DNA of 35,606 nt. Origin: a virus. The notes below the pieces were generated by a model. That model ran no database searches. It saw only the letters and a program-made list of their open reading frames with translations, and was not told the DNA's origin. The translations under genes were made by a program, and so were the position numbers. Location: the IMG/VR virus record IMGVR_UViG_3300047562_004978, positions 1-35,606 of that record. One strand, 5' to 3'. Shown in pieces: positions 26,816-27,691 of this stretch (the first letter of the stretch is position 1; the number at the start of each line of letters is the position of its first letter).

Positions 26816-27691
26816 CACTTTATCCTAAACTTTCGTAAAGGAGTGGACTATATCATCACCCTCATATGAGGGGCAGGACGCTTAAACCTGTTATTAAGGG
26901 GACTAAACCCCTCAGGTAGTCTCTGAACCTTCCTTAGGTACACCTAAGGCTTGGCTGCTGATTACCATGTTATATTGTTCTTTAAGAAAAAGTCTAAATT
27001 GTTCTTCTGTATTATTTCCGTATCCATAGATATCATGGAATAACTTATGAATTTCTTTATGGATTAAAATCCCATTCATAATATCGTATCGCCTTTTAGG
27101 ATACATATTCCAACTATCTAAATGATGAGCAACAAGGTTAGATTTTTTACCAGTAACAAAACAAGTTCTATTGAACCTTGTTTTTATTGCTTCTCTCCAG
27201 ATGTAATACTCTGTTGAGGGGTTGTTAAAATCTCTATTAGGTGTTCCTTTATAGGCCGGATGATTTTCACCAAACTTGCCTTTAAGAGAACCTTTACGAC
27301 CTTTTGCTTTTTTAGATAATTTTTCTCTAGTTTCGATAGAGACTTTTTTATCTTTATGAGTCTTAGAAATAAGAAGTTTTTTACAAAAAGGACAGCCAGT
27401 TTTTCTGGCATTTTTGTAAGAAGCAACACTTGTTTCAAAATAATTACCACAAGTATTACAGAAAAACTTAGCTTTGCTCTTAACTCCAGTATACCCTTCA
27501 ATAGAAACTATTAAATGATTTCTATTATTGGCAATATACTTTAAATCATCAAGAGTGAGTCTTTTAGACATTTAACTTTATGCTTATATAAATATTTAAA
27601 CACAAAGTTTAAAGTTGACAACATAATTTAGGCTTCCAGCAATTCATCCTGTTTAATCAAGGGAATTACTTCCCAGGTGTTCCTCAATTTG
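26816..27691 (-). mobile_element. Group I intron in psbA, carrying an HNH endonuclease gene
   Basis: 876 nt. The 5' exon ends in T (27692) and the intron ends in G (26816), as group I introns require; splicing restores GTT TTT CAG (V-F-Q). P1: exon TGUUU pairs with intron GAACA (27677-27673 region, read in GAGGAACACC) with a U-G pair at the splice site. Next comes a GGGAA-GTAA-TTCCC hairpin. Conserved core elements are visible in order: P AATTGCTGGAAGCC (27644-27631), Q AATCAGCAGCC (26963-26953), R GTTCAGAGACTA (26928-26917), S GATATAGTCC (26854-26845). The P/Q/R/S form fits subgroup IA. The endonuclease frame occupies the region between P and R. Confidence 0.92.
26912..27571 (-). CDS. Intron-encoded HNH homing endonuclease
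   Basis: A 219-aa product. The N terminus has a zinc-binding unit (FFCNTCG ... GCPFCKK, residues about 37-65), then a NUMOD3-like DNA-binding stretch (SIETREKLSKKAKGRKGSLK), then the HNH nuclease: CFVTGKKSNLVAHHLDSWNM followed by YDIMNGILIHKEIHKLFHDI (HH, N and H positions present). It should cut intronless psbA alleles near the insertion site and so drive intron spread. The last ~20 codons run through the intron Q and R core elements, so protein and ribozyme share sequence. It is translated from the precursor RNA; no strong ribosome site is visible. Confidence 0.92.
   Translation of the reverse strand: MSKRLTLDDLKYIANNRNHLIVSIEGYTGVKSKAKFFCNTCGNYFETSVASYKNARKTGCPFCKKLLISKTHKDKKVSIETREKLSKKAKGRKGSLKGKFGENHPAYKGTPNRDFNNPSTEYYIWREAIKTRFNRTCFVTGKKSNLVAHHLDSWNMYPKRRYDIMNGILIHKEIHKLFHDIYGYGNNTEEQFRLFLKEQYNMVISSQALGVPKEGSETT

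What the first reader, a model, noticed from the sequence alone, without database searches (positions are those of the whole stretch)
26816..27691. psbA split by a group I intron with readable splice sites
The intron interrupts the D1 codon for Phe186, just before Glu189/His190, a site conserved in all photosystem II. Exon ends T, intron ends G, P1 with a U-G pair, and P/Q/R/S core motifs are all visible. A group I intron in psbA is known from cyanophage S-PM2. This one is larger because it contains its endonuclease gene, so it is a complete mobile unit.
Basis: partly seen in the sequence, partly recalled or inferred. Interest (0 to 1): 0.75.

Follow-up and report, generated by a model that had tools for sequence, protein, structure and literature searches.

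The report
Mobile self-splicing intron in phage psbA
A virus of cyanobacteria carries a photosynthesis gene interrupted by an RNA segment that should splice itself out and that carries its own DNA-cutting gene; the kind is known, but this insertion point has no reported example that I found, and the wider family shares several insertion points with introns in green-alga chloroplasts.

Summary
On the minus strand psbA runs 28247-27692, is interrupted by an 876-nt group I intron (27691-26816), and resumes 26815-26292; joining restores a 359-aa D1 with all checked cofactor residues. The core folds (P3 99% and P6 100% paired over 73 dereplicated relatives, with compensatory changes) and the intron's guide pairs with its own exon. 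A 219-aa HNH-type homing endonuclease sits in loop L5. So it is a new member of a known kind at a site absent from the cultured phages I searched. More interesting is the context: uncultured cyanophage psbA genes carry related introns at 15 sites, up to six per gene. Six of these sites match chloroplast psbA intron sites in Oedogonium or Ulva, with the same endonuclease type at four. The window's endonuclease family occurs only in psbA introns at sites 548 and 556, 8 nt apart, so the gene has passed between two intron lineages. Splicing and cleavage are inferred, not shown; plastid sequences could not be compared directly.

The parts
27692..28247 (-). psbA exon 1 (codons 1-185 and first base of F186)
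   Evidence: Photo_RC Pfam match E 1e-49; joined ORF without stops
26816..27691 (-). group I intron, 876 nt, insertion site psbA nt 556, begins CAAATTGAGG, ends omega-G at 26816
26292..26815 (-). psbA exon 2 (rest of F186 to stop)
   Evidence: Photo_RC Pfam match E 5e-31; joined D1 359 aa
26912..27571 (-). homing endonuclease ORF, 219 aa: N-terminal zinc-ribbon-like part, weak NUMOD3-like stretch, C-terminal HNH (HH...N...H...H); lies in loop L5, its last ~17 codons overlap the ribozyme core (Q to R)
   Evidence: PHROG 1271 HNH endonuclease 1.2e-12; sub-threshold Pfam HNH_2, Zn_ribbon_8, NUMOD3; conserved motif in relatives
27692..27696 (-). P1 exon strand UGUUU, last U at the splice site
27678..27682 (-). 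P1 guide (IGS) GAACA; G pairs with the splice-site U
   Evidence: no exon of another site pairs as well with this guide
27683..27687 (-). P10 strand UUGAG, pairs with exon 2 UUCAG (26815-26811)
   Evidence: read from the sequence
27661..27674 (-). P2 hairpin GGGAA/UUCCC
27645..27651 (-). P3 5' strand CAGGAUG (3' strand CGUCCUG 26880-26874)
   Evidence: 504 of 511 cells paired, several compensatory types
27633..27644 (-). P motif AATTGCTGGAAG (P4 5' strand UGCUG)
26950..26963 (-). Q motif AATCAGCAGCCAAG (P4 3' strand CAGCA)
26917..26929 (-). R motif GGTTCAGAGACTA (P7 5' strand GACUA)
26845..26856 (-). S motif ATGATATAGTCC (P7 3' strand UAGUC)
26859..26872 (-). P8 hairpin CCCUCA/UGAGGG
   Evidence: poorly conserved in alignment

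Best explanation
A mobile group I intron interrupts the D1 gene of a cyanomyovirus related to S-TIM5. In the psbA transcript the intron RNA folds into a group I ribozyme (apparently IA1-like, ORF in L5). A guanosine would attack after U27692; the freed exon would then attack after the terminal G26816 and restore the F186 codon and a full D1; unspliced RNA would stop after MFVSN and give a 187-aa dead product. The L5 ORF makes an HNH-type endonuclease that most likely recognises intronless psbA around codons 183-186 in a co-infecting phage; repair of the break copies intron and gene into it. Insertion splits the target and protects the carrier. Because the same endonuclease family occurs at site 548 as well, one recognition region probably serves two different intron lineages. 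Shown here: gene structure, conserved fold, guide-exon match, clustering of the core by site, purifying selection on the endonuclease. Inferred: splicing, cleavage, homing.
For: Join restores intact D1. Rfam match; independent MFE fold and covariation of P3, P6. For all six site-556 representatives no exon from another site pairs as well with the guide. The window core and four other site-556 cores (L004, L008, L009, L012) form one clade, support 100/99; over all sites 22 label changes against 54 in shuffles. All 15 relatives of the endonuclease found in IMG/VR lie in psbA introns, ten at 548 and five at 556, none free-standing. Its dN/dS against relatives is about 0.14-0.23.
Against: No RNA or protein data. 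Rfam score is 4 bits under the curated cut-off. The endonuclease is matched only weakly by Pfam HNH and its AlphaFold model is unusable (pLDDT 53), so the nuclease fold rests on PHROG matches and the HH...N...H...H pattern. Its closest relatives are in site-548 introns (76-79% identity) rather than other site-556 introns (64%), so it may be tuned to 548.
Confidence: 0.88

Rival explanations
1. The intron splices but now acts mainly as a regulator of D1 supply (for example light-dependent splicing), mobility being secondary.
For: S-PM2 psbA intron splicing was reported to rise with light (PMC5931967); a PhotoRC-II-like leader precedes psbA here, so regulation at RNA level is plausible.
Against: Presence is patchy and the endonuclease is intact and under purifying selection, which fits a mobile element; different endonucleases occur in the same intron lineage. 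Nothing here tests light response.
Confidence: 0.15
2. The endonuclease belongs functionally to site 548, and the 556 intron is a hitch-hiker that uses (or is merely protected by sitting in) the 548 target.
For: Window endonuclease is 76-79% identical to those at 548 and 64% to L004/L005 at 556; window intron aligns at 79% over most of its length with L048_548 while its ribozyme core groups with 556.
Against: The unrooted set of proteins is also compatible with a 556 origin and one transfer to 548; 548 and 556 are only 8 nt apart, so one target can serve both.
Confidence: 0.3
3. A decayed insertion that no longer splices, leaving psbA as a broken gene.
For: Rfam score just under threshold.
Against: All core helices intact, exons open with every checked D1 ligand kept, ORF intact; P1 and P10 both fit.
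Confidence: 0.04
4. The sites shared with plastid psbA introns are coincidence or convergence because both elements prefer conserved, U-ending positions.
For: D1 is extremely conserved; with only 100 usable positions the chance of six or more matches is about 1e-3, and the real number of usable positions is unknown.
Against: Six of 11 plastid sites match; P about 5e-7 over U-ending positions. Endonuclease type also agrees at four sites (LAGLIDADG at 179, HNH at 276, 408, 548), and so does the loop carrying it in Oedogonium (L9 at 179; L5 at the others).
Confidence: 0.3

Closest known systems
Cyanophage S-CBWM1 psbA introns (MG450654; Xu et al. 2018, cited in PMC8557907)
   Same: Group I introns in cyanophage psbA; the first carries a homing endonuclease ORF of 211 codons that clusters with HNH family A, in the P-Q interval (L5)
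   Different: Mapped here at nt 649 and 1011, not 556; endonuclease of the other HNH family (A)
Cyanophage S-PM2 / S-RSM88 psbA intron with free-standing F-CphI
   Same: Same core family: 81% identical over about 125 nt of the 3' half
   Different: Inserted at nt 1002; 212 nt without ORF; its endonuclease is a separate downstream Endo VII-type gene ('collaborative homing', PMC6083498)
Cyanophage S-SRM01 psbA (NC_070963)
   Same: Freshwater cyanophage psbA with an intron holding an endonuclease ORF
   Different: Three introns by my reading (276 with ORF, 750, 1002); none at 556
Chloroplast psbA group I introns of Oedogonium (PMC2442088) and Ulva (PMC10151680)
   Same: In Oedogonium IA1 type with HNH in L5 at several sites; same insertion sites as cyanophages at 179, 276, 408, 548, 645 (Oedogonium) and 179, 750 (Ulva)
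   Different: No plastid intron at 556 in the two lists I could read; sequences not compared
IMG/VR site-556 introns L004-L012, L087, L242, L243
   Same: Same site; L004-L006, L087, L242, L243 carry the same endonuclease family
   Different: L008-L012 carry a different HNH family, L007 a LAGLIDADG gene in L8

Membership tests
Group I self-splicing intron | Conserved core with P3-P8 pseudoknotted helices and P, Q, R, S motifs | tested here: met
   P3 504/511, P4 351/360, P6 511/511, P7 365/365 cells paired over 73 dereplicated relatives; motifs. P7 is almost invariant, so it gives no covariation support; P8 pairs poorly in the alignment (61%)
Group I self-splicing intron | Exon 1 ends in U paired to G of the guide; intron ends in G | tested here: met
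   U27692, G27682 in the guide, G26816
Group I self-splicing intron | Curated Rfam RF00028 threshold | tested here: not met
   46 bits against 50, E 3.3e-10; cmscan aligns the 5' half inside the ORF, so the large L5 insert explains the loss; ORF-less psbA introns score 69-105
Group I self-splicing intron | Splices in vivo or in vitro | not testable with these tools
   needs RNA
Mobile (homing) intron | Intact internal endonuclease gene under purifying selection | tested here: met
   219-aa ORF; dN/dS about 0.14 to the site-548 relatives
Mobile (homing) intron | Occurs patchily at one exact site, intronless alleles exist | tested here: met
Mobile (homing) intron | Endonuclease cuts the intronless allele | not testable with these tools
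   needs protein
HNH endonuclease | HNH motif by curated profile | tested here: inconclusive
   PHROG 1271 'HNH endonuclease' E 1.2e-12; Pfam HNH_2 15.9 bits against cut-off 21; AlphaFold model too poor
Same element as the S-PM2 psbA intron | Same insertion site | tested here: not met
   nt 556 against nt 1002
Homologue of green-alga plastid psbA introns | Same insertion site as a listed plastid intron | tested here: not met
   556 is not among Oedogonium or Ulva sites; the neighbouring 548 is, and carries the same endonuclease family in phages
Homologue of green-alga plastid psbA introns | Core and endonuclease sequence group with plastid ones | not testable with these tools
   no plastid sequences in the collections

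The most novel reading that the evidence does not exclude
Cyanophage psbA introns and green-alga chloroplast psbA introns are one family that has moved between viruses and plastids: same sites (179, 276, 408, 548, 645, 750), same endonuclease type at 179, 276, 408 and 548 and, in Oedogonium, the same loop there. Cyanophages, whose psbA can hold up to six of these introns, would be a source or reservoir for plastid introns; the window's 548/556 endonuclease is the phage counterpart of the HNH gene in the plastid 548 intron.
Probability: 0.55. Interest if true: 0.8.

Novelty: new member of a known kind. Interest (0 to 1): 0.55.

Why it matters
It adds an insertion site for which I found no reported example in the papers and phage records I could search, and an endonuclease family, to the small set of described cyanophage psbA introns. 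It also exposes a larger pattern: psbA of some uncultured cyanophages is an intron hot spot with 15 sites, endonucleases are exchanged between intron lineages, and six sites coincide with chloroplast psbA introns. The origin of the many plastid psbA introns is unclear to me from the papers read; the phage copies give a concrete, testable source. Since phage D1 supports infection and splicing of the S-PM2 intron was reported to respond to light, several introns in one psbA may also matter for D1 supply.

Tried and rejected
Same site as S-PM2: rejected by exon mapping. Intron at 556 in cyanobacterial genomes: five pattern hits in GTDB genomes proved to be intronless D1 with Val186. Host genomes carrying this core: no exact 23-nt match in 84,980 genomes, though an exact pattern misses diverged copies. 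Endonuclease outside psbA: none among 15 relatives. Structure prediction of the endonuclease gave pLDDT 53 and was not used; no PDB relative. Possible plastid contamination of the viral contigs: flanks of L024, L048, L098, L104 and L018 match phage protein families such as tail fibre, terminase and topoisomerase; no plastid contig seen. My first automatic site calls of 751, 908, 279, 281 and similar were mapping artefacts of overlapping BLAST pieces and were re-read or left out. Paper search for a plastid psbA intron at 556: nothing.

Full report
WHAT IS THERE. The minus strand of the window holds psbA in two pieces. Exon 1 is 28247-27692 and exon 2 26815-26292; between them lie 876 nt (27691-26816). 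Joining the pieces gives 1080 nt and a 359-aa D1 without internal stops, reading ...[18 protein letters not shown]... with the F186 codon split T|TT. All eighteen D1 positions that I checked by name (Mn-cluster ligands, Y161, H190, H198, H215, H272, S264, M183, F186 and others) carry the expected residue. Read through, exon 1 runs into the intron and stops after MFVSN, 187 aa.

THE RIBOZYME. Rfam's group I model matches 27052-26824 with E 3.3e-10, but 46 bits is under the curated 50. The alignment shows why: the ORF inside the intron is used as the 5' half. ORF-less psbA introns of relatives score 69-105 bits and S-PM2's 87.8. By hand: P1 exon UGUUU/GAACA with a U.G at the splice site, P10 UUGAG/UUCAG directly 5' of the guide, P2 GGGAA/UUCCC, P3 CAGGAUG/CGUCCUG, P4 UGCUG/CAGCA, P6 CCUUAGG/CCUAAGG, P7 GACUA/UAGUC, P7.1-7.2 CCUGAGGGG...CCCCU...CAGG, P8 CCCUCA/UGAGGG, P9 with a GAAA loop. 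The minimum-energy fold of the stripped core finds the same helices except P7, which is a pseudoknot. Over 73 dereplicated relatives P3 is paired in 504 of 511 cells with U-A, C-G, A-U, G-C types, P6 in 511 of 511 with many compensatory types; P7 is almost invariant and so neutral; P8 pairs poorly, 61%, partly for alignment reasons. The guide is specific: at all six site-556 representatives no exon from any other site pairs as well.

THE ENDONUCLEASE. The 219-aa ORF 27571-26912 lies between P and Q, that is in L5, and its last codons overlap Q to R. It matches PHROG 'HNH endonuclease' at 1.2e-12; Pfam sees zinc-ribbon, NUMOD3 and HNH_2 only below cut-off. The residues H149, H150, N166, H175 and H179 are invariant among relatives. 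dN/dS is about 0.14 against site-548 relatives and between L004 and L005. A structure prediction failed to give a usable model.

RELATIVES AND SITES. A pattern taken from the core of this subfamily finds 95 stretches in IMG/VR; every locus held contains psbA exons. I mapped 167 introns in these, in the directly found loci and in cultured phages to 15 psbA positions: 179, 230, 276, 317, 408, 499, 548, 556, 645, 649, 750, 890, 1002, 1008, 1011. L104 holds six in one psbA: five mapped cleanly (179, 548, 645, 750, 1011), one near 317 mapped less surely, and there are six Rfam hits over the gene. The pattern is derived from this subfamily, so other intron types may be missed. Such genes are a minority: of 120 IMG/VR psbA loci intronless at 556 only four had any intron, all near 1002-1011. 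Cultured phages: S-PM2 1002; S-CBWM1 649 and 1011; S-SRM01 276, 750 and 1002, although its paper discusses only the first. The 276 junction of S-SRM01 I read by eye. No cultured phage has the 556 intron as far as blastn on the intron shows.

CORE AND CARGO MOVE SEPARATELY. In a tree of 73 cores the sites cluster (22 changes against 54 in shuffles). The window and four other 556 cores form one clade, 100/99. Yet within this clade the window and L004-type introns carry endonuclease family B while L008, L009 and L012 carry the HNH family A that is also at 645 and 317. Family B occurs only at 548 and 556: 10 and 5 of 15 IMG/VR copies. The window's copy is 76-79% identical to those at 548 and 64% to those at 556. 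L007 at 556 has 556-like ends, but a middle like the 548 intron of L104 with the same LAGLIDADG gene in L8 (weak placement 92/21). So endonuclease genes have passed between two intron lineages 8 nt apart. I infer that one recognition region around codons 183-186 serves both.

THE PLASTID LINK. Oedogonium psbA group I introns lie at 179, 276, 384, 408, 525, 548, 570, 645, 754, 898, given as the base before the intron; Ulva has 179 and 750. The phage D1 carries D59, H92, M183 and H215 at the standard plastid numbers, so positions can be compared. Six of the eleven distinct plastid sites equal phage sites. Chance is about 5e-7 if any U-ending position is allowed and 1e-3 if only 100 positions are usable. 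The kind of endonuclease agrees too. Phage 179 introns carry a LAGLIDADG gene after S, that is in the P9 region; Oedogonium 179 has one LAGLIDADG in L9 and Ulva 179 a single-motif LAGLIDADG gene. Phage 276, 408 and 548 carry HNH-type genes in L5; so do Oedogonium's. The families differ at other points: Ulva 750 has a T5orf172-type ORF while the phage 750 introns have none, and the mixed cargo at phage 556 shows that cargo can be swapped. I could not compare sequences, because no plastid DNA is in the collections, and I could not read the subscription papers, so neither homology nor priority is settled. 556 itself is not in the two plastid lists.

VERDICT. The finding is real and correctly read. 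The element is a new member of a known kind at a site I found in no cultured phage. Its context, and in particular the coincidence with plastid introns, is what deserves follow-up.

Noticed in passing
window 28382-28288 (-): A PhotoRC-II-like RNA leader lies upstream of psbA: 38.0 bits, gathering 39, E 5.9e-5; the same leader passes the threshold in L004, L008, L072 (cut off at the 5' end) and L104.
   Followed up: partly
L001 (S-SRM01, NC_070963) psbA region: psbA of cultured phage S-SRM01 appears to hold three introns (276, 750, 1002), while the genome paper discusses one; the annotation leaves the last exons out.
   Followed up: partly
IMG/VR loci with site-179 introns, e.g. L083, L050, L076: LAGLIDADG endonucleases inside phage group I introns at psbA 179; L007 and L104 carry another LAGLIDADG gene in L8. 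To my knowledge this type is uncommon in phages.
   Followed up: partly
phage records cr128_1, cr116_1, PhiCrAssBcn14-18, Vibrio phages R16F and VnaP: Intron core pieces similar to this one (73-87% identical) occur in crAss-like and Vibrio phages, so the ribozyme subfamily probably reaches beyond psbA.
   Followed up: no
L241 and L092 psbA exon 1: tblastn pieces shift frame near codons 56/57 and again between about 132 and 158, so this psbA copy may be broken or misassembled.
   Followed up: no
L229-L233 (Acaryochloris and another cyanobacterial MAG): D1 variants with Val instead of Phe at 186 and other changes, probably divergent D1 paralogues.
   Followed up: no
window 14659-20811 (-): Cluster of 12 tRNA genes found by Rfam, in a contig whose capsid gene is 79% identical to cyanophage S-TIM5.
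   Followed up: no
L072:5127-5175 (+): A glutamine riboswitch hit (35.8 bits, gathering 35) on a cyanophage contig.
   Followed up: no
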